Shown here in pieces: positions 7,600-35,283 of a DNA stretch of 64,000 nt (position 1 is the stretch's first letter; each line of letters starts with the position of its first letter). Where the stretch lies: NCBI RefSeq assembly GCF_900094945.1, contig NZ_FMAQ01000006.1:1-64000 (forward strand). Direction: 5' to 3'. Under the pieces are notes generated by a model. That model saw only the letters and a program-made list of their open reading frames with translations, did no database searches and was not told the origin of the DNA. The translations under genes and the position numbers were made by a program. The stretch is from Gilliamella bombicola. Its GTDB lineage: Bacteria > Pseudomonadota > Gammaproteobacteria > Enterobacterales > Orbaceae.

Positions 7600-9357
7600 A
7601 TGCGTTCAATTTATTGCGGTCAGTTAACGGCATCTCATATTAATCAAGAAGTAACATTGTGTGGGTGGGTCAATAAACGTCGAGATTTAGGCGGTATGAT
7701 TTTTATTGATATGCGCGATCGTGAAGGCATTGTTCAGGTGTTTTTCGACCCTGATTATCAACAAGCGTATCAACTTGCTGGTGAGTTACGTAATGAATTT
7801 TGTATTCAGATTAAAGGGAAAGTGAGAGCTCGACCTGAAGGTCAAATCAATAAAGAGATGGCAACTGGCGAGGTTGAAATTTTGGCCACTGAGCTGACTA
7901 TATTTAACCGTAGCGATGTTTTACCTCTTGATTTCAATCAAAATAATAGTGAAGAACAGCGTTTAAAATATCGTTATATCGATTTACGTCGCCCTGAAAT
8001 GGCAACGATTTTTAAAACTCGAGCCAAAATTACTGCGTTTGTTCGTTCATTTATGAACGAGCATGGTTTTTTAGATATTGAAACACCCATGTTAACCAAA
8101 GCAACACCAGAGGGAGCTCGAGACTATTTAGTACCAAGCCGAATTCATAAAGGTGAATTTTATGCCCTTCCACAATCACCACAGTTATTTAAGCAATTGC
8201 TGATGATGTCAGGATTTGATCGCTATTATCAAATTGTAAAATGTTTTCGAGATGAAGATTTGAGAGCTGATCGTCAACCTGAATTTACCCAAATCGATGT
8301 TGAAACGTCATTTATGACGGCCGAACAAGTGCGTGAGGTTATGGAACAAATGATTCGTGAACTTTGGTTGCATGTTAAAAATGTCGATTTAGGCCAGTTC
8401 CCTATCATGACTTTTGCTGAGGCGATGCGTCGTTTTGGTAGCGATAAACCTGATTTACGTAATCCGCTCGAAATTATTGACGTGGCTGATATTGTTAAAG
8501 ATGTTGATTTTAAAGTGTTTTCAACTCCAGCCAATGATCCTAAAGGTCGCGTAGCTTTACTTTGTGTACCAAATGGTGCCCAATTAACGCGTAAGCAGTT
8601 AGATGAATATACACAATTCATTTCAGTTTATGGTGCTAAAGGTATGGCATGGATTAAGGTTAATGAACGCCATAAAGGGCTAGAGGGCGTACAAAGTCCT
8701 GTAGCAAAATTCTTTAATGAATCACAAATGGAAGCCCTACTTAATCGAGCCAATGCTAAAGATGGCGATATTTTATTATTTGGTGCCGATAGTTATAAAG
8801 TTGTAAGTGATGCACTTGGCGCATTACGTTTAAAAGTTGGTAAGGACTTAAGCTTAACTGATGAAAGTAAATGGGCGGTACTTTGGGTTATTGATTTTCC
8901 TATGTTTGAAGAAACAGACGAAGGACTAAGTGCAATGCATCATCCATTTACCTCACCAAAAGATTATACACCAGAAGAGCTTATCAAAAACCCTGAAAAT
9001 GCCGTTGCGAATGCTTATGATATGGTTATAAATGGTTATGAAGTTGGGGGTGGATCGGTTCGTATTCATCGCAGTGAAATTCAGCAAGCAGTTTTTTCAA
9101 TTCTAGGTATTAATGAACACGAGCAACGTGAAAAATTCGGCTTTTTACTCGATGCATTAAAATACGGCACACCACCTCATGCAGGATTAGCATTTGGATT
9201 AGATAGACTAAGCATGTTATTAAGTGGAACAGATAATATCCGTGATGTGATAGCATTTCCTAAAACAACTGCGGCCGCATGTTTATTAACTGATGCGCCA
9301 AGTCCAGCAAATGCGGCTGCATTAACTGAATTGGGTATTGAAGTAAGTAAAAAATAG
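7600..9357 (+). CDS. aspS: Aspartate--tRNA ligase AspS
   Basis: 585 residues, the bacterial-type length. It charges tRNA-Asp in the cytoplasm. In order: an N-terminal OB-fold anticodon-binding domain (residues ~1-110, '[11 protein letters not shown]'), class II motif 1 around '[20 protein letters not shown]', motif 2 '[14 protein letters not shown]', the bacterial GAD insertion (~residues 285-420) and motif 3 'GLAFGLDRL'. The ATG at 7600 follows an AGGA ribosome site eight bases upstream. A TATAAT-like -10 lies near 7550. nudB follows after 9 bp, as a likely operon. Confidence 0.96.
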
Positions 9358-11954: not shown

Positions 11955-13019
11955 ATGAAAAAAAATCAAATTTTATTAGTACTATTATTATCCATTTCTT
12001 GTTGTGCAATGGCTACAAATTATAAGGTGCAATCAAGCGATGCCCAATTAAAGCTTAAAGAGTCAGAGTCGTTGCTCCCTTCTTTGCGTTTGTCTGCAGA
12101 AAAAGGAAACGCAGAAGCTCAGTACTCATTAGGTGGTATTTATAAACAAGGATTGGGGGTTGAAGCTAGTGATGTGCGTGCTTTTTTTTGGTACAAAAAA
12201 GCAGCCGAACAAGGACTTGCCAAAGCACAAAATAATTTAGGGTTTATGTATCAAAGTGGTCTAGGTACTGAGCGTAATTTAAATGAAGCGTTTAAATATT
12301 TTAAATTAGCTGCAGCTCAAAATTATGCGTTGGCTAAATATAATTTAGCTTTAATGTATAAAGAAGGTGACGGTATAGGAAAAAACACATTAGCTGCGAT
12401 TGATTATTTTTCACAAGCAGGTGATGAGGGTATTTATGATGCTTATTTAAATCTCGGTATTATGTATTTTTTTGGTGATGGAGTAACAAAAGATCGCATG
12501 ATAGCGGCTGATTGGTTTAGTAAAGCTGCGAAAGATAATATTCCAGAAGCGCAATATTATTTAGGGCTAATGTCAGAAAATGGTGATGGTTTAACCCAAG
12601 ATTATGTCGCTGCTAACTATTTTTATACACAAGCGGCAGAACGAGGGTATGTGCTAGCTATGTATAATTTAGCTATTATGTATGCAACCGGAACGGGAAC
12701 TAAACCAGACAATACACAAGCTGCATATTGGTTTACTAAAGCTGCTGAAGCGGGTAATGCCGATGCTCAATATAATATTGGTGTGATGTACGATGTAGGC
12801 GGTGGTGTTGATAAAGATGAGAAAAAAGCCGTTGAATGGTATCTAAAAGCTGCAGAGCAAGGCAGTGTAGATGCTCAATATAATTTAGGTGTTAAATATC
12901 TGGAAGGTGAAGGTATTGATAAAGATCAAGAGCGTGCTATCTATTGGTTCACTAAAGCTAGCGAACAAGGCGATCAAGATGCTAAAGCTTATTTAGAACA
13001 GTTATTACCTAAGAAATAA
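11955..13019 (+). CDS. Exported Sel1-repeat protein
   Basis: 354 residues. An N-terminal signal peptide (about residues 1-20, MKKNQILLVLL...CCAMA) is followed by eight or nine tandem ~36-residue Sel1-type repeats from residue ~50 to the end. Each repeat carries the pattern A..[QK]Y.LG.MY..G.G...D...A..W..KAA..G. Such solenoids act as protein-interaction scaffolds; bacterial exported examples often affect envelope or host interaction. No partner is evident. It is preceded by a long AT-rich gap and followed by a terminator, so it is probably monocistronic. Confidence 0.85.
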   Translation: MKKNQILLVLLLSISCCAMATNYKVQSSDAQLKLKESESLLPSLRLSAEKGNAEAQYSLGGIYKQGLGVEASDVRAFFWYKKAAEQGLAKAQNNLGFMYQSGLGTERNLNEAFKYFKLAAAQNYALAKYNLALMYKEGDGIGKNTLAAIDYFSQAGDEGIYDAYLNLGIMYFFGDGVTKDRMIAADWFSKAAKDNIPEAQYYLGLMSENGDGLTQDYVAANYFYTQAAERGYVLAMYNLAIMYATGTGTKPDNTQAAYWFTKAAEAGNADAQYNIGVMYDVGGGVDKDEKKAVEWYLKAAEQGSVDAQYNLGVKYLEGEGIDKDQERAIYWFTKASEQGDQDAKAYLEQLLPKK

Positions 13020-13377: not shown

Positions 13378-16023
13378 TTATCCTGAGTTTCGCATACCAG
13401 CTGCAATTCCAGAAATAGTAATCATTAACCCCTGTTCTACTATAATATTTTCGTTATCGCTGTATTTTCGTGAACGACTTAATAACTCAGCCTGTAATAA
13501 ATTTAATGGTTCAATATAAGTATTACGCAAAGCTACCGACTGTGCTATCCACGGTAAATCAGCCATTAAGCTAATATCATCGGTAACAGTTAGCACGGTA
13601 TTGATATCTTGGGTTAACAAACTTCTTAGTTCTTCACCTAATGGCCATAGTGCAGGATCGACTAAACGTTGCTCGTAATATTCGTGAATATTCGGTGCGG
13701 CTTTGGCATAGACCATTTCAAGCATACCTAATCGAGCATTAAAAAAAGGCCAATTGTGATACATCTCTTTAAGGAGATTTTGTTTACCCTCTTCAATAGC
13801 TACTCTAAGTGCACTACCGGCACCAAGCCAAGATGGCACCATTAAACGGTTTTGTGTCCAAGCAAAAATCCATGGGATAGCACGTAAACTTTCAATACCA
13901 CCGCCAGTACGGCGTTTTTGAGGTCTGGAACCAAGTGGTAATCTACCTAATTCCGCCTCTGGCGTTACTGCTCTAAAATAATCAACAAATTCAGCTCGTT
14001 CTCGTACATAACTGCGATAGCAATTGCACGAAATTTCAGACATTTCATCCATGATATTGCGCCATTCTTGTTTAGGGGCTGGCGGTGGCAATAAGTTGGC
14101 TTGTAAAATCGCTGATGTATACAGCATTAAACTGCTGAGCGCAACTTCTGGTAGGCCAAGTTTAAAACGGATCATTTCACCTTGTTCGGTAACTCTAAGT
14201 CCGCCTTTTAATGAACCAGGTGGTTGTGAAAGCAGGGCCGCATGCGCTGGTGCTCCACCTCGACCTATTGAACCACCTCGCCCATGGAATAGCACTAAGT
14301 TAGTATCATATTTTTCAAATAAGCTAACTAATTCTTCTTGCGATCGATATTGTGCCCAAGATGCTGCGAGTGTCCCTGCATCTTTAGCTGAGTCGGAGTA
14401 GCCTATCATCACCATTTGCTTACCTTGAATTTTGTCGCGATACCAAGGAATATCCAGCAGTTTTTGCATCACCGATTTTGCGTTATTTAAATCTTCTAAT
14501 GTCTCAAATAACGGTGCAACTGGAATATATTTTTGGCAATCAACAATTTTCAATAATAAGTAAACGGCTAATATATCAGAAGGGGCTTTAGCCATCGATA
14601 TTACGTAGGAGGCAATCGATTCTTCGCCAGCTTTTTTGATAACACGACAGGTATCTAAAACTTCTTGAACCATTTGATCTGGTTGCCAGTTATAAGGCAA
14701 TAATGGTCGATTAGATTGTAATTCAGTTAATAAAAACGCTTGTTTTTCTTGCTCTGTCCATTTTGCATAGCTACCTAAATTAAGCTCTTTGGTTAATGCA
14801 TCAAGCGCTTCAGTGTGCATAGAGCTGTCTTGGCGAATGTCTAATCGGACTAATTGTAAACCAAAACTTTTTATGCGTCGTAAAGTATCAAGTAATGGAC
14901 CATGGGCTATAGTTGACATACCATGATCAATTAATGACTCATAACAGGTATAAAGTGGCATCCATAGCTGTTCATTTTTAATTAAAATATCACTGGGTGG
15001 TAATACTCGTTCATTATTCAGCAAAGCTTCAATATAATTGTGAGTGTTAATCAAACGTGTTCGTAACTGTTTCATTACAGCTCGATAGGGCTCGGAAACA
15101 GTTTTGTTTTTTTCATCTAATAGATCAATAACTGAATCACTACATTCTGTCATTGAAAGCTCACGTACTAGTATTTGAATATCGGCTAAAAATAACTCGA
15201 TTGCCTTTAATCTCGCTTGTAGCATGACCTTTTCGGTCACTTTAGCTGTCACATTTGGATTACCATCACGATCTCCGCCCATCCATGAGGTAAATTTAAT
15301 AGGCACATGATCAACTGGTAATTGCTCATCAAAGGCATCGACTAACTGGTCATTAAGTTCACGCAAAAATAGCGGCACACCTTCCCATAAGCTATCTTCA
15401 ATGACCGAAAATCCCCATTTAGCTTCATCAATGGGGGTAGGGCGTTTTTTGCGGATTTCATCGGTATACCATGCCTGACAAACTAACTGTTTTAAGCGAC
15501 GCATAATTCTTTCTATTTCATAGTCGGCTAAATCATCATGATCCAGTTGAGATAAACAGTTATTAATAGCCGTATAAGTATTTATCATGGTTCGGCGATT
15601 AATTTCGGTCGGGTGTGCAGTTAGCACCAATTCAATCGATAACTCATTAATCGCTTCTGTAATAGTTTGATTTGAAAAATTGAGATTTTTAAGTGTACTA
15701 AATAATTCAGTCATTTTTTTGGGGCTACTAGATGCTTCTCCATGGGGAGAAATACCATAATATTCAGCAGCCGTATTGACTAAATTTAAAAACTGATTAA
15801 ATGCTCGTGCAACATGTAATAAATCATCATCATTAAGGTTCTCAATTAATTTGAGTAGCTCATTATGTGCTTGAGTGTTTCCTTGTTGAGCTGATTTTGA
15901 TAGATTTCTTATTTTTTCAACTAAATCAAAGGTTTCATTGCCAGTGGCCCGTTTTATTGCATTGCCTAGTAAAGTGCCTAACATATTGACATTACTTCGC
16001 ATTGAAGAGTATTGGTTATTCAT
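13378..16023 (-). CDS. ppc: Phosphoenolpyruvate carboxylase Ppc
   Basis: 881 residues versus 883 in E. coli. It carboxylates PEP to oxaloacetate, the anaplerotic entry that matters where the TCA cycle is branched. Catalytic blocks are intact: '[13 protein letters not shown]' (catalytic His near residue 138), '[14 protein letters not shown]', '[12 protein letters not shown]', '[13 protein letters not shown]' and '[13 protein letters not shown]'. The C-terminus reads MRNSG where most homologues end in NTG, a conservative change. It is transcribed away from nuoJ; both start from the 16024-16375 gap. Confidence 0.96.
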
Positions 16024-16375
16024 GATTCTCTCATCTTAGATTTTATTATGCCTAAGCACCTTTAAGCTGCATGACCCAAATGACAAATTAATGGGATAGG
16101 TATAATGATTGGTTAATGTGCTTAATTTATATACTTTATAACAATTTCGCTTTGAATTTAAATAATAAAATTTTATGGTTTTTATTTTTTTTAGTTGTTT
16201 TAATTATATTTACCATGAAAGATTAACAAATAAAAATTTCACATTTCATTATGACATACTCACCCAAATACGGTTTAATAAGCTTATTTTTCGATGAACA
16301 CTATGTTTGTAAACTGTATCTTGATATCATTTGGGTATATACTAACAGCATTATCAATACATATCGGATTATTTA
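16024..16375. promoter_or_regulatory. Divergent promoter region between ppc and nuoJ
   Basis: 352 bp of AT-rich DNA with no gene. It must contain promoters for ppc (leftward) and nuoJ (rightward). A TATACT hexamer at 16338-16343 is a possible -10 for nuoJ, but no well-spaced -35 could be matched. The gap matters because nuoA-I, which normally precede nuoJ, are absent here. Confidence 0.4.
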
Positions 16376-16867
16376 ATGATCGCTGTTTTTTATATCGCGT
16401 CGATTATTGCTGTTTTTGCCAGTATAAAAGTGATTAGTAGTTTAAGGATTGATAAAGCAATCTTATACCTTGTTATTTCTCTTTTTGCATCAGCGTTGAT
16501 ATTTATTCTACTTGATAACTATTTTTTTGCTGTTTTATATATCCTATTATTTATTGGTGGATCGGTAACTATTTTTTTACTTGTTGCTTCAATTTTGAAA
16601 ATTAGTGTGGATACTGTAGAGCATAACAAAAACGGTATTAGTCCAAAAATTTGGTTAGGACCGCTAATTTTAGCCTTTATTTTGCTTGTTGTTCTTATTT
16701 ATGGTGTAGTAAGTGTTAATTACTTAGAATTAAAGGAATCTCATGAATTAATGCATGAAATGTCCATATATGCCTACATTTTGATGGCTGAATTAGCCTT
16801 GTTTTTATTATTAGGTGCAGCCGTGATTTCGTATCATTTTATGCATCGGCTTATGTCGGAGAAATAA
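16376..16867 (+). CDS. nuoJ: Complex I membrane subunit NuoJ, divergent
   Basis: 163 residues with five membrane segments, resembling NuoJ in layout: opening 'FYIASIIAVFASIKVI', central 'KIWLGPLILAFILLVVLIYGVV', final 'AYILMAELALFLLLGAAV'. NuoJ helps link the quinone site to the proton-pumping arm of NADH:quinone oxidoreductase. The usually strongly conserved third helix (E. coli 'LEIIVYAGAIMVLF') reads 'LYILLFIGGSVTIF' here, losing its Glu and the YAGAI pi-bulge motif. It is the first gene of a nuoJKLMN unit; nuoK starts 1 bp after its stop. The frame is intact. Confidence 0.8.
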   Translation: MIAVFYIASIIAVFASIKVISSLRIDKAILYLVISLFASALIFILLDNYFFAVLYILLFIGGSVTIFLLVASILKISVDTVEHNKNGISPKIWLGPLILAFILLVVLIYGVVSVNYLELKESHELMHEMSIYAYILMAELALFLLLGAAVISYHFMHRLMSEK

Positions 16868-16868
16868 T

Positions 16869-17171
16869 ATGATTCCACTCATGTATTGTCTTATTTTTGC
16901 CTCTATTTTATTTGTGATTGGTTTATTAGGCGTAATGATTCGACGTAATTTTTATTTTTTATTACTTAGCCTGATTATTATGAATAATGGTGCAATAGTT
17001 GCATTGTTTGCAGCAAGTAGCTATTGGCAACAATCCGACGGACAAGTGCTTGCAATACTAGCGGTAATAACGACTTTTGCTGAAGTTTGTGTTGGCCTTG
17101 CGTTAATGATGAAACTATTTTATCGTCGAAAAATCTTTAATATTGATTCATTGAGTGAAATGAAAGGATGA
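16869..17171 (+). CDS. nuoK: Complex I membrane subunit NuoK, lacking Glu36
   Basis: 100 residues, exactly the E. coli length, alignable without gaps ('MIPLMYCLIFASILFVIGLLG', 'RRNFYF', 'SYWQQSDGQV', 'NIDSLSEMKG'). NuoK carries two membrane glutamates needed for proton transfer. Glu72 is kept ('FAEVCVGLAL'), but position 36 is Ile ('LSLIIMNNG' where E. coli has LGLEIM-type sequence). Loss of this Glu abolishes or strongly cuts pumping in known mutants. It overlaps nuoL by 4 bp, which implies translational coupling. Confidence 0.88.
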   Translation: MIPLMYCLIFASILFVIGLLGVMIRRNFYFLLLSLIIMNNGAIVALFAASSYWQQSDGQVLAILAVITTFAEVCVGLALMMKLFYRRKIFNIDSLSEMKG

Positions 17172-19015
17172 ATTTACTTTATTTAACTATTATTGTTCCC
17201 TTGCTCACTTTTCTAATATTAGTTTGCTTTGGAAGGCATATTCGATCAATTAATGTGATGATTATTGGTATTAGTACTATGCTAGTAATTACATTAATTA
17301 CTATTTTTTCTTGTATTGACTTTATTTCAAACATAGTTCCAGACATGAGCTTAGTTTATACAAGACCATTATGGAATTGGTTTTCTGTAGGCGATTTTAT
17401 TGTGCCTATTTCTTTAACTTTAGATGGTTTATCACTAATTTTTTTAGTTTTAATCTCATTCTTCGGTTTTTTGATCTACTTCTTTGCGGCCTGCTATTTA
17501 ACGTCAAGCAAGGATATTTATAACTTCTACGCGTACAGTAATTTATTAATTGCCAGTATATTAACCGTCATATTAGTTGATAATTTGTTTGTTATGTTAA
17601 TTGGTTGGGAAGGTGTAAGCATAAGTACTTACTTACTTATTGGAATCTACTATCAACAGGCTCGTAATGGTTATGCGGCTGTAAAGGCATTTATCATGAT
17701 GCATTTAACCGATATCTTTTTAATTCTTGGCATATTTTTATTGTATCAAACTGTAGAAACATTAAATATCCGTGATGTTTTGACGCAAGCTCATGATAAT
17801 TTGGCGGTCGATTCAGACATCATCTTTTGGATAACGTTAATGCTGTTCCTTGGTGCAATGAGTAAGTCTGCGCTATTTCCTATGCATTCATGGTTTGCTC
17901 AAACAACATTAGCACCAATGCCTGCGGTAGCTTTATTGCAATCTTCAACGGTGATTTTAGCTGGAGTATATTTAGTTTTAAGGCTTAGTAATTTGTTTAT
18001 GATGTCAAATGACGTGCTTGCTATTATATCAATAATGTCATCGTTAACCATATTATTTGCTAGCACTATCGCCTTAGTACAATATGATATTAAACGAATT
18101 ATCACCTATATTAATTTAGCGCAAATCAGTTATATATTTTATGCTTTTTCAACGCAGAATTGGAGCTTGTCTCTTAATTACTTAATTAATTATGCTGTAA
18201 CAAGCACATTGCTGATTTTAGCTTCATCAATTTTAATCAAAAAATGCCAAGGTGAACGCGATATAAGCAAAATGGGAGGCTTAATTAAATCGTTTCCGAT
18301 GCTATATTCGGTATTTTTGTTTATTATGATATCACTAAGTGCTATGCCTTGGATTTCATCATCATTTTATATCAAGGGCGATATCATATTGGGCTTAATG
18401 GCTCAAGATAAATTGATATCTGGGACCATTGGTTTATTAGGTATTTTACTTTCTAGTTTAAATATTTGGCGTTTAATTTCAATAATATTTTATCACAAAC
18501 AAAAACAGTCTGACTTTGCAAAAACTAAATGGATAAGTTATTTGCCAATTTTTATATTACTGATATTTCCTACCGCGTTATTTATCTATTTCCCATTACC
18601 AATTCGCGGTATTGTTCCAATCGCTGAGTTAGACACTAACGGACAATTACTTTTCCAACTACTGTTAGCCGCAGTGACAGGATTAAGCTTCTTGATTGCC
18701 TATATTTTGTATGCACGTCCAAATAGCGAAGTACAAGAAGTTTTAAATACGCCAATGATTAAATTCTTTTTACGATTATGTAATAGTGATTGGCGTTATG
18801 ATTATTTGTTGCATACTCTATTTGTTAAACCTTATGTCTACCTAGCTAATTTATTAAAAAAAGATCCATTAATTTTATGGGATAATTGGATTTTGTGGGG
18901 TATTAGAAAGGTAAATGAATTCATCGTTGACTTAGAAAATGGGCAAATTCGATGGTATATGCTGTCAATGGTTATAGGTAGTATTACCATATTAATGTTA
19001 CTGATTTTTATTTAA
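17168..19015 (+). CDS. nuoL: Complex I antiporter-like subunit NuoL, divergent
   Basis: 615 residues, alignable end to end with E. coli NuoL at a constant offset of four across the channel region, including the C-terminal lateral helix ('LENGQIRWYMLSMVIG'). Retained: Glu148 ('GWEGV'), Asp182, Lys233 and Lys403. Changed: the conserved His of 'ALIHAATMV' is Gln258; the two His and the Lys of broken helix 12 (E. coli His334, His338, Lys342) are Tyr338, Tyr342 and Ser346; the Asp after Lys403 is Gly. These residues form the central water channel of this subunit. The frame is intact and hydrophobicity is preserved, so the gene is not obviously a pseudogene. Confidence 0.88.
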   Translation: MNLLYLTIIVPLLTFLILVCFGRHIRSINVMIIGISTMLVITLITIFSCIDFISNIVPDMSLVYTRPLWNWFSVGDFIVPISLTLDGLSLIFLVLISFFGFLIYFFAACYLTSSKDIYNFYAYSNLLIASILTVILVDNLFVMLIGWEGVSISTYLLIGIYYQQARNGYAAVKAFIMMHLTDIFLILGIFLLYQTVETLNIRDVLTQAHDNLAVDSDIIFWITLMLFLGAMSKSALFPMHSWFAQTTLAPMPAVALLQSSTVILAGVYLVLRLSNLFMMSNDVLAIISIMSSLTILFASTIALVQYDIKRIITYINLAQISYIFYAFSTQNWSLSLNYLINYAVTSTLLILASSILIKKCQGERDISKMGGLIKSFPMLYSVFLFIMISLSAMPWISSSFYIKGDIILGLMAQDKLISGTIGLLGILLSSLNIWRLISIIFYHKQKQSDFAKTKWISYLPIFILLIFPTALFIYFPLPIRGIVPIAELDTNGQLLFQLLLAAVTGLSFLIAYILYARPNSEVQEVLNTPMIKFFLRLCNSDWRYDYLLHTLFVKPYVYLANLLKKDPLILWDNWILWGIRKVNEFIVDLENGQIRWYMLSMVIGSITILMLLIFI

Positions 19016-19030
19016 AAGGTGTAATCATTC

Positions 19031-20575
19031 ATGTTGTTATGGCTTGTTTTTTTACCTGTAATAGGCGGATTTATTGGTTGGTTATGCCATGTATGTCTAC
19101 AACGAGGCGTTGTTTCTGTCAATGTACAAATTCGTTGGTCAAAATTACCAATAATTGTAGCATTTATCACTATTTGTATTACATTATTGATGACGATAAT
19201 ATTATGGATAGATGCCGTAAATGTATTAAATCAAGGGGAAAACTGGATAAAAGAAATTAATTTGGATTGGATCCCCTTATTAGGTATTCATTTTCATCTT
19301 GTTTTAGACGGTCTATCGATGGTTGTGATCACTGCAACTCTATTCATCGTGTTATTAACGATTGTTTATTCAAGCAAAGAAAGTCTAAATAATCTTGGCT
19401 TGTTTTATTTATGCCTATTATTTATGACATCAGCCATTATGATGCTATTTGTAATCGCTGATTTATTTTTAATGTTCTTCTTTTGGGAAGCCGTTGCGAT
19501 TCCTATCTATTTTTTAATTTCACTATGGGGACGACGAGATTCAAGCTCACAATTGCGTTTTAATGGTGCCAGCAAGTTTTTGATTTATACTCAATTAAGC
19601 AGCTTACTTATGCTTATCTCTATTGTATCACTAGCCTTAATTAACTGGAACTTAACAGGGCATTGGACCTTTGATTACCAGGTATTAACAAAAACGCCAA
19701 TTTCAAGCGATACCGAATTTTTGCTCATGCTTGGATTCTTAGCCGCTTTTATCGTGCGAATCCCTTTTGTTCCTTTTCATGGTTGGTTTATTGAAGCCCA
19801 TATGGAATCCTCAACAACTGGATCGATGATGATCAGTGGATTGTTACTTAATACTGCAGCATTTGGCTTACTGCGTTTTGTTATACCGCTATTTCCTAAT
19901 GCTTCCATCATGATTATGCCAATTATGTTAGTTCTTGCTCTGCTTACAATTGTTTATGCTGCGCTAGTTGCATTTAATCAAACGGATATTAAAAAACTTA
20001 TTGCTTATATTCATATTGCGTTAATGGGATTTGTTACAGCCATTATTTATAGCGGTTCTGTTGTTGCTTATCAAGGTGTGGTTATTCAAATGATCGCTAT
20101 CAATTTAGCAATAGTTGGCATGTTTATAATTAGTGGATTATTGGGGGAATGTTACTCAACACGAAACATAACTCAGTTTATTGGTCTTAAAGAGCGAGTA
20201 CCTTATCTATCTTCATTTACCTTGTATTTTATCTTAGCCGTATTGGGCATTCCTGGCACAGCTAATTTTGTAGGTAATTATATGATGTTACTTGGTAGTT
20301 ATAGTACTTTTTCGTTCTATACAATTTTTCTCGTAATTGGCTTATTATTGCTGTCTATTTCATTTATTGTCCGTATGCAGCCTATTTTTTATGGAGCTGT
20401 CGATAAAGGGGCCGCACCAAAATATCTTCTTAGTAAAAAAGATCTTTTGTTATTATCAAGCACTTTAATTGTCCTTATTTTTATTGGTTTGTATCCTCAA
20501 GTGGTTTTAGATATGTCTTATTCTGTTGTGAATCAAACACAACAATACATCACTACCGAGCGAGTGGGAGAGTAA
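19031..20575 (+). CDS. nuoM: Complex I antiporter-like subunit NuoM, divergent
   Basis: 514 residues, with a constant offset of nine to E. coli NuoM over the channel helices. Kept: Glu153 ('FFFWEA'). Replaced: Lys234 to Arg243, Lys265 to Asn274 ('GLLLNTAAFG'), His322 to Leu331, His348 to Ile357 and Glu407 to Asn416 ('ANFVGNYMML'). Lys234, Lys265 and Glu407 are, from published E. coli mutagenesis as I recall it, needed for activity or pumping. Overall family identity is clear ('LDGLSMVVI', 'VPFHGWF', 'LFPNAS', 'NQTDIKKLIAY', 'VLGIPGTANFVG'). Start ATG at 19031 follows AAAGGTG. Confidence 0.88.
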   Translation: MLLWLVFLPVIGGFIGWLCHVCLQRGVVSVNVQIRWSKLPIIVAFITICITLLMTIILWIDAVNVLNQGENWIKEINLDWIPLLGIHFHLVLDGLSMVVITATLFIVLLTIVYSSKESLNNLGLFYLCLLFMTSAIMMLFVIADLFLMFFFWEAVAIPIYFLISLWGRRDSSSQLRFNGASKFLIYTQLSSLLMLISIVSLALINWNLTGHWTFDYQVLTKTPISSDTEFLLMLGFLAAFIVRIPFVPFHGWFIEAHMESSTTGSMMISGLLLNTAAFGLLRFVIPLFPNASIMIMPIMLVLALLTIVYAALVAFNQTDIKKLIAYIHIALMGFVTAIIYSGSVVAYQGVVIQMIAINLAIVGMFIISGLLGECYSTRNITQFIGLKERVPYLSSFTLYFILAVLGIPGTANFVGNYMMLLGSYSTFSFYTIFLVIGLLLLSISFIVRMQPIFYGAVDKGAAPKYLLSKKDLLLLSSTLIVLIFIGLYPQVVLDMSYSVVNQTQQYITTERVGE

Positions 20576-20581
20576 TCACCT

Positions 20582-22327
20582 ATGATAGCTTTATCGCCTA
20601 TTTTTGTATTAAGCTTTGCCATCATTGTTTTATTGTTTTTATTGTTTGTTTTTAAAATAGGTACCAAAGGATGCGCTATTTTAACGGTATGTGGATTATT
20701 CTGCGCATTAATTTTTTCTGTGGTGGTTGGTTATAAAATTTCGTTTAGCACGCAAGCTATTACGGATATTAGCAGTGACAATATGCAAATATCGGTATCA
20801 ACTTCTGATCCTATTAAAGAACCCAATCCATCGAACGAAGAAACAATTGCAATTGATTCCGTACCTACGGAATCGGTGGAATCACCAAATGAAAACATAA
20901 GTATTGACGATAATATCGACAACAGTGCTGTTGATAATAATGGTGATATAAATATGGATGCTAACTCTAATTCCCATATTGATGATGGTTCTGGCATTGA
21001 CGATCCTTCAATGGCAGAATGGAAAGCGCGCCATATCACCGCACTTTTCACCTGCGATGGCTACGGCTTACTTTATACCAGTTTGATTTTGATGATATCC
21101 ATTGCAGTTGCATGCTTTGCTTATCGTTGGTTTAAGCAAGAACAGGTTCAGCACGGATTATTTTATTTAATTCTGCTTTTTATGGTATTAGGTGGTGTAA
21201 CACTGGTATACGCCAGTCATTTAATCGCATTTTTTGTTGGAATTGAACTATTATCCATTCCCTTTGTGGGATTAATTGGTTATCAATATACACAGACTCA
21301 TTCATTAGAAGCTGCTGTTAAATATATGATTTTATCGGCTGTTGCTAGCGTATTTTTATTGATGGGAATCGCTTTTTATTATGCAACGACAGGAGAGTTG
21401 ACTTTCAGCGGGTTAAGTTACCAGCTTTCAACGATGTCTTACCCAAGCACATTACTACTAATAGGTGTTTGCTTGATGTTAGTTGGTATTGGTTTTAAAT
21501 TATCACTGGTGCCATTTCAACTTTGGTTGCCTGATGTTTATCAGGGGGCACCAACGGTTGTCGCCTTATTATTATCAACAGTTGGAAAAGTGGCAGTGTT
21601 CTGTGCCATCGCAAGGCTATTCCTATTGGCACCGATCGTTAATAATGAAACTATCCGTATTATTTTAGTTATTATGGCTTTTTGTTCTATTTTGTGGGGC
21701 AATTTACTGGCGTTAAAGCAAAGTAGCTTAAAGCGATTACTTGCTTATTCATCAATAGCGCATTTCGGCTATTTATTTACGGCTTTAATTGCTGTTCAGT
21801 ATCAAGTGCTTGCATTAGAAACCATTGGTGTTTACCTAATTGGCTATATTTTAGCTAATATCTGTATATTAGGTGCTATCAGTTTAGATTCGCATTCTAA
21901 TGAACTGCAAGACCATGAAAACGAAATTGATCTTTCAGGTCTATTTTGGCGCAGGCCAATCCTTGCATTAGCGATGGGCATTGGCTTTTTATCTTTAGCA
22001 GGGACACCTCTAACTGCCGGTTTCGTTGGACGATTTTTATTGGTGTTATTAGGCGTAACTGCGGAATTATGGTGGTTAGTTGCCGCCGTGGTTATTGGTA
22101 GTGCATTGGGGCTTTATTTTTATGCCCGTTTAATTATCAATCTTTACATTAAACCGTCTTGTCGAGATGGCCAAATGTTAAGTGGCACTTCGATTAAGTT
22201 AAAATGGACAGATATTAGAATAAGCGAGTTAATCATCGTATTGTGTGCCTTATTGACTCTACTTTGTGGAATTTACCCTAAATGGTTATTTAACTTAGTT
22301 AGCATGGCGCAATATTTAACTACGTAA
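20582..22327 (+). CDS. nuoN: Complex I subunit NuoN with a large acidic insertion
   Basis: 581 residues versus 485 in E. coli. The excess is an insertion at residues ~60-146, between membrane helices 2 and 3, made almost entirely of Asp, Asn, Ser, Glu and Ile (for example 'NIDNSAVDNNGDINMDAN'). This loop should face the periplasm. The rest is a good NuoN: Glu222 ('GIELLSIP'), Lys306 ('GFKLSLVPF'), Lys336 ('VGKVAVF') and His394 ('SSIAHFGY') are kept, while the Lys of helix 12 is Arg484 ('GFVGRF'). So NuoN retains more of the proton path than NuoL or NuoM. It is the last gene of the unit. Confidence 0.9.
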   Translation: MIALSPIFVLSFAIIVLLFLLFVFKIGTKGCAILTVCGLFCALIFSVVVGYKISFSTQAITDISSDNMQISVSTSDPIKEPNPSNEETIAIDSVPTESVESPNENISIDDNIDNSAVDNNGDINMDANSNSHIDDGSGIDDPSMAEWKARHITALFTCDGYGLLYTSLILMISIAVACFAYRWFKQEQVQHGLFYLILLFMVLGGVTLVYASHLIAFFVGIELLSIPFVGLIGYQYTQTHSLEAAVKYMILSAVASVFLLMGIAFYYATTGELTFSGLSYQLSTMSYPSTLLLIGVCLMLVGIGFKLSLVPFQLWLPDVYQGAPTVVALLLSTVGKVAVFCAIARLFLLAPIVNNETIRIILVIMAFCSILWGNLLALKQSSLKRLLAYSSIAHFGYLFTALIAVQYQVLALETIGVYLIGYILANICILGAISLDSHSNELQDHENEIDLSGLFWRRPILALAMGIGFLSLAGTPLTAGFVGRFLLVLLGVTAELWWLVAAVVIGSALGLYFYARLIINLYIKPSCRDGQMLSGTSIKLKWTDIRISELIIVLCALLTLLCGIYPKWLFNLVSMAQYLTT

Positions 22328-22338
22328 TTAACTTTTAT

Positions 22339-22367
22339 CCGCCTTCATTGCTTGGTTGGCGGAGTTA
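22339..22367 (+). terminator. Possible terminator after nuoN
   Basis: TCCGCC pairs with GGCGGA around a loop of about 14 bases shortly after the nuoN stop. There is no T-run, so this is weak. Confidence 0.35.
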
Positions 22368-22512
22368 TATTAACCAAAGTATCTTAAAACACTTTTTATA
22401 CTAAAACGCATACTTTCCTGAAATTTTTTTACAAGAAATAGTTAATAACAGATTTATTTATTGTGTTATAATTCCGACCTTTAAAAATTTAGTTTAAAAC
22501 AAGAGGACCAGT

Positions 22513-22842
22513 ATGGATTTTTTAATCTCTAATGCCTATGCAGCCGATGGTAGCCAACCAGGTGGCGATTATATTATGCCAATTATGTTAGTTGTGTTTG
22601 GTTTATTTTTCTATTTTATGATTATGCGCCCACAGCAAAAACGCGCTAAAGCACATCGTGAGTTAATGGCTTCAATTTCAAAAGGTGATGAAGTGTTAAC
22701 TAGTGGCGGGCTTATAGGTCGTGTAGCAAAAGTTAACGAAAATGGTTACATCGCGCTAGAGTTAAATGATACGACTGAAGTTGTGATCAAGCGTGACTTT
22801 ATCGCATCAGTTTTACCAAAAGGGACAATGAAATCACTATAA
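22513..22842 (+). CDS. yajC: Sec translocase accessory subunit YajC
   Basis: 109 residues, normal for YajC. One membrane helix (~residues 20-38, 'IMPIMLVVFGLFFYFMIM') is followed by 'RPQQKRAKAHRELM' and a cytoplasmic domain with 'GDEVLTSGG', all diagnostic. It associates with SecD and SecF next to SecYEG at the inner membrane. The gene is preceded by a TATAAT hexamer near 22469 and an AGAGGA ribosome site. The tgt and queA genes that precede yajC in E. coli are not present here. Confidence 0.95.
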   Translation: MDFLISNAYAADGSQPGGDYIMPIMLVVFGLFFYFMIMRPQQKRAKAHRELMASISKGDEVLTSGGLIGRVAKVNENGYIALELNDTTEVVIKRDFIASVLPKGTMKSL

Positions 22843-22901
22843 TAGAGCTTTATCTATTGTGTTCATTGTATTAATTACCTAATCCTACAAGAGAATATGT
22901 C

Positions 22902-24758
22902 GTGTTAAACCGCTATCCTTTGTGGAAATACATCATGTTGGTCGTTGTTATTTGCTTCGGCCTTCTTTATGCACTTCCAAATATTTATGGTGAAGATCCC
23001 GCTATACAAATTTCAGGTTCAAATACTGCCGAAATCGATGTCGCTACACGAGATCAAGTTAAAAAACTTTTGTCCGATAATCATATCCAACCGAAATCAT
23101 TAGTTTATGACAACAAATCGATATTGATTCGTGTTGGTGATAACGATACTCAGCTTAAAGCAAAAGAACTTATATCTGAAGCATTGGGTGAAAAGTATAT
23201 TGTTGCATTAAATTTAGCACCAGCAACGCCTGCATGGCTTACTGTGTTAGGTGCCGAACCGATGAAACTGGGTCTTGATTTGCGTGGTGGTGTTCACTTC
23301 TTAATGGAAGTCGATATGACCACTGCATTAAGTAAACTCACTCAACAATCTATCGAAAACATCAAAGCTGAATTTACTAATAGCAAGTTAAACTATAAAA
23401 CGATAAGCAAAGATAGTAATCAGCAAATTGTAATGCAATTTGATAATACTGAAGATCGCAATAAAGCCATTACCAAGATCAATGGAATACAAGACTATAA
23501 AGTGATCTCTCAACGCGACAACAGTATCGTCATCAATGTCAGTGAACAACGTTTACAACAAGCGAAAAATGATGCTGTACAACAAAATACTACCATTTTA
23601 CGTAATCGTGTTAACCAACTCGGTGTTGCTGAACCAATTGTTCAACGTCAAGGGGCAGATCGTATTGTCGTTGAATTACCCGGCATACAAGACACTGCAT
23701 TAGCCAAGCGTATTTTGGGAGCAACGGCAACACTAGAGTTTAGACAAGTTAACGAAGAGAGTACGTCTAATTTGCCGGCTATTCTAAATGGTGATAAGCG
23801 TATTCCTTATGGTTCAGAAATTCAGTATATGGAAGACGGTCGCCCAGTACTACTTTATAAACGCATTGTATTAACTGGCGATCATATTACCGATTCTTCA
23901 TATCGCGTTAATCAATATGGTCAACCCGAAGTTGCTATTACACTTGATGGTTCGGGGGGTAAAAGAATGCTTGATTTTACCCAAAAAAATCTTCATAAAG
24001 CGATGGCAACCTTATTTGTTGAATACAAAGATACTGGTAAACGTGATGAAAACGATAAACCGATCTTTGAAAAACAAGAACGAGTTATCAACGTCGCGAC
24101 TATTCAGGGTATTTTTAGTGATCGCTTCCAAGTAACTGGTATTGGTAGTATTGATGAAGCTAAAAATTTATCACTATTATTACGTGCAGGGGCATTAATT
24201 GCACCGATTCAGATTATTGAAGAACGAACCGTTGGGCCATCAATGGGGCAAGAAAATATAACCCAAGGCTTAGAATCTTGCGCATGGGGTTTATTGATTT
24301 CTGTCATTTTTATGCTAGTGATGTATCGTTTGTTTGGTGTGTTTGCAAGCCTTGCATTAGTTGCAAACTTAATTTTAATTGTTGGTGCAATGTCTTTACT
24401 TCCTGGGGCAACGCTAAGCATGCCCGGTATCGCAGGTATTGTATTAACTGTGGGTATGGCTGTTGATGCCAATGTACTGATTAACGAACGAATAAAAGAA
24501 GAGCTTAGTAATGGACGTGGCGTTCAGCATGCAATTAATGAAGGGTACGCCGGCGCTTGGAGCAGTATTTTCGATGCCAACCTGACCACTTTAATTACTG
24601 CTGTTATTCTTTATGCAGTTGGTACAGGATCAATTAAAGGTTTTGCCATTACACTAGGCATCGGTATTGTAACATCAATGTTTACATCGATTGTCGGTAC
24701 TCGTGCATTAGCCAATCTTATTTATGGCGGTCGTCGCGTTAATAAGTTATCAATTTAG
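22902..24758 (+). CDS. secD: Protein translocase subunit SecD
   Basis: 618 residues (E. coli 615), GTG start with AAGAGA upstream. SecD and SecF use the proton gradient to help pull exported proteins through SecYEG on the periplasmic side. Membrane helix 1 ('YIMLVVVICFGLLYALPNIYG') is followed by the large periplasmic domain ('LGLDLRGGVHFLMEVD', 'NQLGVAEP..QRQGADRIVVELPG') and five C-terminal helices containing 'GMAVDANVLINERI'. It lies 9 bp before secF. Keeping full SecDF fits the large load of outer-membrane and secreted proteins in this window. Confidence 0.96.
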   Translation: MLNRYPLWKYIMLVVVICFGLLYALPNIYGEDPAIQISGSNTAEIDVATRDQVKKLLSDNHIQPKSLVYDNKSILIRVGDNDTQLKAKELISEALGEKYIVALNLAPATPAWLTVLGAEPMKLGLDLRGGVHFLMEVDMTTALSKLTQQSIENIKAEFTNSKLNYKTISKDSNQQIVMQFDNTEDRNKAITKINGIQDYKVISQRDNSIVINVSEQRLQQAKNDAVQQNTTILRNRVNQLGVAEPIVQRQGADRIVVELPGIQDTALAKRILGATATLEFRQVNEESTSNLPAILNGDKRIPYGSEIQYMEDGRPVLLYKRIVLTGDHITDSSYRVNQYGQPEVAITLDGSGGKRMLDFTQKNLHKAMATLFVEYKDTGKRDENDKPIFEKQERVINVATIQGIFSDRFQVTGIGSIDEAKNLSLLLRAGALIAPIQIIEERTVGPSMGQENITQGLESCAWGLLISVIFMLVMYRLFGVFASLALVANLILIVGAMSLLPGATLSMPGIAGIVLTVGMAVDANVLINERIKEELSNGRGVQHAINEGYAGAWSSIFDANLTTLITAVILYAVGTGSIKGFAITLGIGIVTSMFTSIVGTRALANLIYGGRRVNKLSI

Positions 24759-34516: not shown

Positions 34517-34873
34517 TTACATTCGAATAAATAATATATAAACAGCATGTAATGTCCATGCTAATGCTAATCCAAACGTGAGTAACTTTTCGTGTTTGGG
34601 ATAGATTTTATATTTATGCAAAAGAGTTAGAATTTGCTGTAACCCACACCAGATAGGTAACGAAATCATTAAAAATAAAAAGACTTTGCCTATTTCTGTA
34701 TTGGCTATTTTTATAATATAAGATCGCGTTGCTACATCACCAAAGGAAATCATAAGCGTCATAATGATTAGCACAATAGGTGAAAACATAGCAGCCCATG
34801 TTCCTCCAAGTGTAAATAAACTTTTTATTACTTTTCCATCTGTGTTTTTTGTTTGAATTTGTTCATTTTTCAT
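34517..34873 (-). CDS. frdD: Fumarate reductase membrane anchor FrdD, divergent
   Basis: 118 residues from the ATG at 34873 (E. coli 119); a longer reading to 34942 would overlap frdC and is not needed. Family signs: 'GGTWAAMFSPIVLI', 'IGKVFLFLMISLPIWCGL' and three membrane helices. FrdD and FrdC anchor FrdAB to the inner membrane and form the menaquinol site. After 'CGL' the E. coli His-Arg pair and following His are Gln79-Gln80 and Thr83 here; these side chains contribute to quinone binding in E. coli. frdA and frdB are not adjacent. It starts 14 bp after frdC. Confidence 0.78.
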   Translation of the reverse strand: MKNEQIQTKNTDGKVIKSLFTLGGTWAAMFSPIVLIIMTLMISFGDVATRSYIIKIANTEIGKVFLFLMISLPIWCGLQQILTLLHKYKIYPKHEKLLTFGLALAWTLHAVYILFIRM

Positions 34874-34887
34874 TGATGCAATACCAC

Positions 34888-35283
34888 TTATTTCAATACA
34901 AGTAAAAATAAAAAAATCGATACAGCTAGCATAACTGTCCATAACCCTACAGTCAGTAATAATCTGTTAGATTTTTTATTAAACATTGCACTAGGAATCA
35001 TTTTATAGATTAACCTAAACCAATTTATCGTATGGAAAACGCTAACCAACAATGCAATACAATTAAGCACCACAATAACAGGACTACGTAAAAAGAAGAT
35101 AAAACGGTAAAACTCATCTTGCCCAAGGGTATTTGTGTGCATACATACTACACCATACATTAAAATTAAACTTACCCAAATCATGGAAAAAGGAACTAAT
35201 TTGTGCATAATAGCAATTATACAGGGACGCTTTACATCGGTTTGAATAGCATCAAGGTGATTATTGTTATTTTGTTGATTCAT
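34888..35283 (-). CDS. frdC: Fumarate reductase membrane anchor FrdC, divergent
   Basis: 131 residues, the same as E. coli FrdC, with three membrane helices and the block 'FLRSPVIVVLNCIALLVSVFHTINWFRL', where E. coli reads NPVIVIINLITL...HTKTWFEL. That His is kept. The E. coli Arg-Glu pair before helix 1 (Arg28-Glu29 in mature numbering), used in menaquinol oxidation, reads His27-Lys28 here. It is the first gene of a two-gene unit with frdD; upstream is a 468-bp gap and then kup, so frdAB are absent. Either the anchor works with distant frdAB or it has drifted. Confidence 0.78.
   Translation of the reverse strand: MNQQNNNNHLDAIQTDVKRPCIIAIMHKLVPFSMIWVSLILMYGVVCMHTNTLGQDEFYRFIFFLRSPVIVVLNCIALLVSVFHTINWFRLIYKMIPSAMFNKKSNRLLLTVGLWTVMLAVSIFLFLLVLK

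What the first reader, a model, noticed from the sequence alone, without database searches (positions are those of the whole stretch)
16376..22327. Detached nuoJKLMN with loss of proton-channel residues
The genes nuoA-I do not precede nuoJ; a divergent promoter and ppc do. Gap-free alignment from memory to E. coli shows NuoK Glu36 to Ile; NuoM Lys265 to Asn, His322 to Leu, His348 to Ile and Glu407 to Asn, with Lys234 to Arg; NuoL His254 to Gln, His334 and His338 to Tyr, Lys342 to Ser; and NuoJ's conserved third-helix motif replaced. NuoN keeps most key residues. All five frames are intact. So either complex I pumps fewer protons, the arm has a new role, or the unit is at an early stage of loss. 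Such concerted loss in an intact operon is unusual.
Basis: partly seen in the sequence, partly recalled or inferred. Interest (0 to 1): 0.78.

Follow-up and report, generated by a model that had tools for sequence, protein, structure and literature searches.

The report
Orphan complex I membrane arm, repurposed
Bee-gut bacteria and their relatives have lost the electron-carrying half of respiratory complex I but have kept, and rebuilt in a consistent way, five genes of its membrane half, which suggests that this half of the machine now does a separate job that has not been identified.

Summary
The window's genome (2.32 Mb, rated 100% complete) holds one nuoJKLMN set, no NuoD and no NuoH. NuoF is found in 0 of 44 Orbaceae genomes. 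NuoJ is in 42 of 44, including 39 of 39 good-quality ones from five genera. All five frames are full length in the 41 of those 42 genomes that I examined.

The residue losses are mostly fixed across the family, e.g. NuoM E407N and H322L in 41 of 41. Selection is purifying: median dN/dS 0.08-0.15 within the genus. Constraint has moved from NuoL/M to NuoN: N/L divergence ratio 0.65, against 1.27 in canonical complex I. NuoN has gained an acidic, probably periplasmic loop (stretch of 79-227 residues; 19-21 in controls).

The gene set is published, as a possible remnant of genome reduction (PMC11325843); the evidence here is against that. Most likely it is a redox-free membrane complex centred on NuoN, probably handling ions. 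That activity is inferred and untested. It does not look like a standard Mrp antiporter.

The parts
16376..16867 (+). nuoJ, 163 aa; helix 3 altered; homologue in 42 of 44 Orbaceae genomes
16869..17171 (+). nuoK, 100 aa; E36 replaced (M22, I14, V5 in 41 genomes), E72 kept here (E25, Q16 in 41)
17168..19015 (+). nuoL, 615 aa; keeps E144, D178, K229, K305, K399; lost H254, H334, H338, K342, D400
19031..20575 (+). nuoM, 514 aa; E144 and H241 kept, K234R; K265, H322, H348, E407 lost; His gained at E. coli position 319
20582..22327 (+). nuoN, 581 aa; E133, K158, K217, K247, H305 kept, K395R; slowest of the three large subunits in Orbaceae
20750..21025 (+). coding stretch (about residues 57-148) of the acidic, low-complexity loop inserted between helices 2 and 3 of NuoN; limits approximate
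   Evidence: helix positions from the weak model
16024..16375 (.). gap between the divergent ppc and nuoJ; presumed promoter region of the unit, no regulator site identified

Best explanation
The five genes encode a stand-alone membrane complex made from the distal part of complex I (NuoJ, K, L, M, N). It is inherited throughout the Orbaceae and works without an NADH or quinone module. Shown here: absence of the redox subunits that I searched for, family-wide intact retention, purifying selection, fixed and partly relocated charged residues, constraint moved onto NuoN, and a new acidic loop on NuoN. Inferred: the five proteins still assemble into one arm (NuoL keeps its length, 614-617 aa in 41 of 41, and so probably its lateral helix). 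NuoM, which has lost its central lysine and distal glutamate, has become mainly a spacer. NuoL has lost its central bases and the exit aspartate D400. NuoN, with its Glu-Lys pair, central lysine K247 and acidic loop, is the working subunit, and it moves or senses protons or other cations in response to the membrane gradient rather than to electron flow. The least certain step is the last: ion exchange or gated conduction by NuoN. My estimate for that step alone is about 0.4.
For: One nuoLMN set in the genome and no NuoD; NuoF 0 of 44; NuoH in 5 of 44 genomes, not in the own one, each time flanked by antiporter-like genes as in hydrogenase-4. NuoJ in 42 of 44 genomes and 39 of 39 good-quality ones. 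All five genes full length in 41 of the 42 positive genomes, the other (G034) not fetched. Median dN/dS J 0.147, K 0.095, L 0.098, M 0.079, N 0.105; neighbours yajC 0.100, secD 0.056, secF 0.047, sel1-like 0.139, ppc 0.035 (4 pairs). At a neutral distance of 0.5 about 162 nonsense events would be expected over the five frames. Fixed in 41 of 41: NuoM E144, R234, H241, L322, N407; NuoN E133, K158, K217, K247. Charge gains beside losses: NuoM H322 lost with His at 319 (40 of 41), R442 lost with Arg at 439 (41 of 41). N/L divergence ratio median 0.65 (10-90%: 0.55-0.79; 812 pairs) against 1.27 (1.04-1.43; 137 pairs). Acidic NuoN loop in 41 of 41. No trace of nuoA-I by tblastn at E 0.01 in 68 partly overlapping Orbaceae loci.
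Against: No activity, expression or partner is shown. NuoN K395 is R in 40 of 41 and NuoM K234 is R in 41 of 41; arginine rarely gives up a proton, so even NuoN may not conduct protons right through. NuoL E144 is missing in 3 of 41 and K399 in 1 of 41; NuoL D400 is lost in 40 of 41. Median dN/dS is about 1.2 to 2 times that of the canonical controls, so constraint may be somewhat weaker; but the pooled control values are as high or higher than the Orbaceae ones (0.101-0.247 against 0.085-0.151), so this control is unreliable. The extremes of the N/L ratio overlap between the groups (control minimum 0.28, Orbaceae maximum 0.96) and pairs are not independent. In E. coli the NuoM E407K variant still pumped about 75% of protons per electron (PMC9271201 passages), so losing that residue need not abolish proton transfer. 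The AlphaFold model of NuoN was too poor to use (mean pLDDT 46).
Confidence: 0.6

Rival explanations
1. Mrp-type antiporter: the arm exchanges Na+ or K+ for H+ as Mrp does, NuoL acting like MrpA and NuoN like MrpD, and replaces lost antiporters.
For: Same superfamily and a redox-free set; E. coli NuoL restores loss of MrpA but not MrpD in B. subtilis (PMC4938563 abstract). NhaA and NhaB are in 0 of 44 Orbaceae genomes. NuoN keeps its Glu-Lys pair and central lysine in 41 of 41.
Against: MrpA keeps residues equivalent to NuoL H254, T257, M258, V259, H334, H338 and K342 in both Mrp operons compared, while Orbaceae NuoL has lost most of them; both MrpD keep lysine in TM12, where NuoM has Asn and NuoN has Arg or Gln in the rows shown. 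Other antiporter families remain: PF00999 in 43 of 44 and PF03553 in 40 of 44. Against this objection: the helix VIII mutants of PMC4938563 all still coped with high salt (abstract), so those residues are not strictly needed.
Confidence: 0.15
2. Scaffold: the arm no longer moves ions and serves as a membrane platform or assembly partner for another complex, for example a quinone-linked enzyme or the orphan FrdCD anchor.
For: Central and exit groups of M and L are gone and arginines replace lysines. FrdC is also kept, in 43 of 44 genomes, and is reported without FrdAB outside Zophobihabitans (PMC11325843). New invariant surface-type charges, such as NuoM D161 and D206.
Against: A pure scaffold would not need the buried Glu-Lys pair and K247 of NuoN invariant in 41 of 41. 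No partner gene travels with the unit in all loci: ppc is beside it in 15 of 20 and yajC-secDF in 19 of 20 of the longer loci.
Confidence: 0.15
3. Remnant: the genes are left over from genome reduction and are not needed, as suggested in print.
For: PMC11325843 suggests it. Catalytic subunits are gone. L, M and J have diverged strongly from E. coli.
Against: 42 of 44 genomes in five genera keep the NuoJ gene, 41 of 41 examined have five full-length frames, dN/dS is about 0.1, and new residues are invariant across the family.
Confidence: 0.1

Closest known systems
Respiratory complex I (NDH-1), membrane arm NuoJKLMN of E. coli
   Same: Gene order J-K-L-M-N and subunit families; window identity to E. 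coli J 31%, K 54%, L 37%, M 42%, N 45%; best solved matches of NuoL and NuoN are E. coli 3rko_L and 3rko_N.
   Different: No NuoD, NuoF or NuoH in the genome; NuoK E36, NuoM K265/H322/H348/E407 and NuoL H338/K342 lost in all or nearly all of 41 genomes; long acidic insert in NuoN; NuoN slower than NuoL instead of faster.
Mrp (MnhA-G) cation/proton antiporter
   Same: Redox-free assembly of the same superfamily; homology NuoL/MrpA, NuoN and NuoM/MrpD, NuoK/MrpC, NuoJ/C-terminal MrpA (PMC7419157 passages).
   Different: No MrpB, E, F or G genes in or beside the unit, three large subunits instead of two, and MrpA helix VIII and TM11 residues and the TM12 lysine pattern not met.
nuoJKLMN of Gilliamella as described in PMC11325843
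   Same: The same genes, reported in all 95 Gilliamella genomes and conserved across Orbaceae.
   Different: Described there as possible remnants; I saw no residue, selection or loop analysis in the passages and the part of section 11 that I read.
Hydrogenase-4 / formate hydrogenlyase membrane module
   Same: Antiporter-like and NuoH-like proteins in 5 of 44 Orbaceae genomes.
   Different: A separate locus, not in the window's genome.

Membership tests
Respiratory complex I (NDH-1) | membrane-arm subunits J, K, L, M, N | tested here: met
   Pfam PF00499, PF00420, PF00361 above cut-off; NCBIfam: K above its equivalog cut-off, M and N above the subfamily cut-off, J and L below theirs
Respiratory complex I (NDH-1) | NADH and quinone modules, NuoH and NuoA | tested here: not met
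   NuoD 0 in own, NuoH 0 in own, NuoF 0 of 44, NuoA in no Orbaceae of the sample. NuoB, C, E, G and I tested only by tblastn on 68 loci around the unit
Respiratory complex I (NDH-1) | conserved titratable residues of the NuoK, M and L proton paths | tested here: not met
Mrp antiporter | MrpA to MrpG subunit set | tested here: inconclusive
   no further small subunits in or beside the unit and no PF00361 protein besides L, M, N; MrpB, E, F, G not searched genome-wide
Mrp antiporter | MrpA helix VIII and TM11 residues; TM12 lysine in MrpA and MrpD | tested here: not met
   against two Mrp operons only (L152, L153); NuoL does keep the TM12 lysine in 40 of 41
Mrp antiporter | cation/proton exchange activity | not testable with these tools
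   needs vesicle or complementation assays
Decaying remnant | interrupted frames, dN/dS approaching 1, patchy presence | tested here: not met
DabAB inorganic carbon transporter | DabA partner next to a NuoL-like DabB | tested here: inconclusive
   no DabA seen beside the unit, DabA not searched genome-wide; DabB2 9rd0_B is only a weak match of NuoL

The most novel reading that the evidence does not exclude
The Orbaceae have turned the distal half of complex I into a new kind of redox-independent ion-handling membrane complex in which NuoN, with an acidic periplasmic loop, is the active unit and L and M are remodelled supports: a natural, long-lived experiment in running the complex I arm without its engine.
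Probability: 0.35. Interest if true: 0.82.

Novelty: new variant of a known kind. Interest (0 to 1): 0.62.

Why it matters
How proton movement is divided among NuoL, M and N, and whether the arm can do anything without the redox module, is still debated. Here a bacterial family has kept the arm without the redox half and has rewritten it site by site while keeping it intact. Which residues survived (nearly all Glu-Lys/Arg pairs, and the NuoN central lysine) and which did not (NuoK E36, NuoM and NuoL central and exit groups) may separate residues needed for redox-driven pumping from those needed for whatever else the arm does. It also changes the reading of bee-gut symbiont metabolism: a published possible 'remnant' is probably an active membrane complex. 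The test is simple, because Gilliamella is a culturable bee symbiont (recalled).

Tried and rejected
Second canonical nuo set: searched and not found. NuoH-positive family genomes: five, all with antiporter-like genes on both sides of the NuoH-like gene, two read in full; read as hydrogenase-4 and set aside.

Replacement of missing Na+/H+ antiporters: promising when NhaA and NhaB were 0 of 44, but PF00999 was in 43 of 44 (the one I read is 546 aa) and PF03553 in 40 of 44. Kept as weak evidence only.

Mrp-like residues: tested and not met. Structure prediction of NuoN from 18 sequences failed (mean pLDDT 46); no fold search was run on it, and the second prediction job was not used. Regulation: no FNR-type site within one mismatch in the ppc-nuoJ gap; promoter-like matches in 15900-23000 were fewer than in shuffles (26 against 36).

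Similar orphan sets elsewhere in the order: outside Orbaceae the over-cut-off counts are 114 for NuoJ (147 less 33 Orbaceae) and 114 for NuoA. I noticed one genome with NuoJ but no NuoA (G100, 500 contigs) and one the other way round (G189, with stops inside); I did not compare the two lists further. The genome-contig scan (two peptide patterns only) gave 45 loci: 28 Orbaceae and 17 others. Of the 17, 12 carry nuoF-I upstream, 2 carry part of that, and 3 show none (L128 and L138 are contigs of 5-6 kb; L142 is noted below).

Literature searches. In these I found no work giving a function, expression data or a mutant for the Orbaceae genes. The library holds only open-licence PubMed Central papers, and only listings were seen except for the papers cited.
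Full report
The observation. Pfam and NCBIfam identify them as NuoJ, K, L, M and N relatives; J, L, M and N fall below the strict equivalog cut-offs, K passes. Against E. coli K-12 sequences from the public record I reproduced all residue changes listed for K, L and M. NuoJ helix 3 is changed too. The upstream gene is ppc on the other strand, and yajC-secD-secF follow downstream. In the twenty longer loci (17-19 kb) ppc is next door in 15 and yajC-secDF are downstream in 19.

No complex I is encoded, as far as tested. In the window's genome the only three antiporter-like proteins are these L, M and N, and NuoD and NuoH give no match. NuoF is found in 0 of 44 Orbaceae genomes. NuoH is found in 5 of 44; in all five the NuoH-like gene sits between antiporter-like genes, and in the two read in full the order looks like that of hydrogenase-4 (gene names by recall). 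NuoA was found in 114 of 394 genomes of the order, none of them Orbaceae; the NuoJ search of a same-sized sample found 33 Orbaceae. E. coli NuoA-I find nothing by tblastn (E 0.01) in 68 Orbaceae loci, which include overlapping copies of the same genomes.

It is a family trait. NuoJ is present in 42 of 44 genomes and 39 of 39 good-quality ones in five genera; the two misses are 59% and 74% complete. I fetched 40 of the other 41 positive genomes (not G034) and found all five genes full length and contiguous in each. Named records give Gilliamella, Frischella, Orbus, Zophobihabitans, Candidatus Schmidhempelia and two unnamed Orbaceae. The Schmidhempelia locus has all five genes (L045, L126), although one passage of PMC11325843 speaks of lack of nuo genes shared with that organism.

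Selection. Within the genus (32 sequences) median pairwise dN/dS is 0.147 for nuoJ, 0.095 K, 0.098 L, 0.079 M and 0.105 N, from 338, 215, 81, 77 and 73 of 496 possible pairs; the other pairs lay outside dS 0.1-1.2 and were dropped. Neighbours give yajC 0.100, secD 0.056, secF 0.047, sel1-like 0.139 and ppc 0.035 (4 pairs only). Canonical nuo genes from 20-21 controls have medians 0.091, 0.048, 0.082, 0.055 and 0.068 but wide spread, and their pooled values (0.101-0.247) equal or exceed the Orbaceae ones (0.085-0.151), so the comparison with controls is not reliable. At a neutral distance of 0.5 some 162 nonsense changes would be expected over the 1973 codons; none of the 41 genomes has a truncated gene.

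What changed. Over 41 genomes NuoM keeps E144 and H241 in all, has R for K234, N for E407 and L for H322 in all, and N30, T6, S4 or G1 for K265. NuoK E36 is M22, I14 or V5; E72 is E in 25 and Q in 16. NuoL keeps D178 and K305 in all, E144 in 38, K229 in 39 (R in 2) and K399 in 40; H338 is Y in all, K342 is S in 39, H254 is Q in 38 and still H in 3. NuoN keeps E133, K158, K217 and K247 in all and H305 in 37; K395 is R in 40 and Q in 1. Some charges moved rather than vanished: NuoM gains His at 319 (40 of 41) as H322 goes, Arg at 439 as R442 goes to Pro (both 41 of 41), and Asp at 161 and 206 (41 of 41). NuoL D400 is lost in 41 of 41 (Gly in 40, Ser in 1). In a joint alignment NuoL's TM11 has come to resemble canonical NuoN (Tyr-Tyr-Ser), not MrpA, and NuoM's TM12 Asn matches neither complex I nor Mrp.

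Constraint has moved to NuoN. In canonical complex I, NuoN diverges faster than NuoL: ratio median 1.27, 10-90% range 1.04-1.43, 137 of 190 pairs. In Orbaceae it diverges slower: 0.65, 0.55-0.79, 812 of 820 pairs (pairs with NuoL distance 0.05-1.0). A closer control subset gives 1.32. The extremes overlap (control minimum 0.28, Orbaceae maximum 0.96), and pairs are not independent. Identity to E. coli agrees: in ten Orbaceae loci NuoN (46-49%) is as close as in six Moraxella loci (43-48%), while NuoL (34-44%) and NuoM (38-46%) are far below Moraxella's 56-60% and 58-63%.

A new loop. In the stretch that corresponds to E. coli NuoN residues 52-71, between helices 2 and 3, Orbaceae have 79-227 residues where 20 canonical controls (of 21 loci; one gave no NuoN) have 19-21. 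Net charge is -4 to -27 in 41 of 41, the sequence is low in complexity, and length differs between close relatives. The basic residues between helices 1 and 2 put this loop on the periplasmic side by the positive-inside rule (inference). The AlphaFold model is too poor to add anything beyond coil there.

Mechanism. PMC9271201 (passages) treats K265, H322 and E407 of NuoM as a proton relay and D400 of NuoL as the proposed exit; its E407K variant pumped about 75% of protons per electron, so that residue is not strictly needed. PMC7419157 (passages) raises the possibility that protons pass to and from the periplasm only on the MrpA/NuoL side. With K265, H322, E407 and D400 all gone, the Orbaceae arm should not pump as complex I does. 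What is left is the Glu-Lys or Glu-Arg pair in nearly all copies of the three large subunits and a nearly whole set in NuoN. I therefore favour a redox-free complex with NuoN as the working part, moving or sensing protons or cations. The constant length of NuoL (614-617 aa in 41 of 41) suggests that its lateral helix, and so the assembled arm, is kept. The transport step is inferred. A scaffold for an unknown partner is the main rival.

Against a simple Mrp reading. The NuoL/MrpA-specific residues in helix VIII named in PMC4938563 (abstract and section 11) are largely lost, although the same abstract says that mutants at those sites still coped with high salt. NhaA and NhaB are missing in all 44 genomes, which fits a need for another exchanger, but other antiporter families are there.

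What is known. PMC11325843 reports nuoJKLMN in all 95 Gilliamella genomes and its conservation across Orbaceae, and suggests remnants of reduction. A survey of complex I in prokaryotes (PMC12361115; passages) has an 'incomplete' class and does not contain the words Orbaceae or Gilliamella in its main text. In my searches I found no study of selection, residues or function for these genes.

Corrections made on checking: the counts for NuoL D400 (lost in 41 of 41; Gly in 40) and for the membership rows on Mrp and DabAB (now inconclusive where only the neighbourhood was tested). Where the field on evidence says D400 is lost in 40 of 41, it means Gly in 40; the remaining genome has Ser.

Noticed in passing
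window 34517-35283 (minus): frdD and frdC, a second orphaned membrane anchor: FrdC is found in 43 of 44 Orbaceae genomes, with lower scores in Gilliamella than in Zophobihabitans and three Orbus-group genomes, and is reported without FrdAB outside Zophobihabitans (PMC11325843). The N-terminal stretch that carries the quinone-site Glu in E. coli FrdC (recalled) looks replaced.
   Followed up: partly
44 Orbaceae genomes: NhaA (PF06965) and NhaB (PF06450) are found in none of 44, while the E. coli control is positive.
   Followed up: partly
L045, L126: Candidatus Schmidhempelia bombi carries all five genes, although one passage of PMC11325843 speaks of lack of nuo genes shared with it.
   Followed up: yes
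L142: A Balneolales MAG locus with nuoJKLMN and no nuoF-I found in the stretch held upstream; may be only a split operon.
   Followed up: no
L039, L040 (Frischella genus): In both genomes NuoL has R for K229; L039 has E for K399, and L040 has V for E144, so NuoL drifts further there than in the other genera.
   Followed up: no
window 7928-7941 and 12916-12929: Two perfect FNR-type palindromes; 14 sites with at most one mismatch in the window against 7.1 expected, none in the ppc-nuoJ gap.
   Followed up: no
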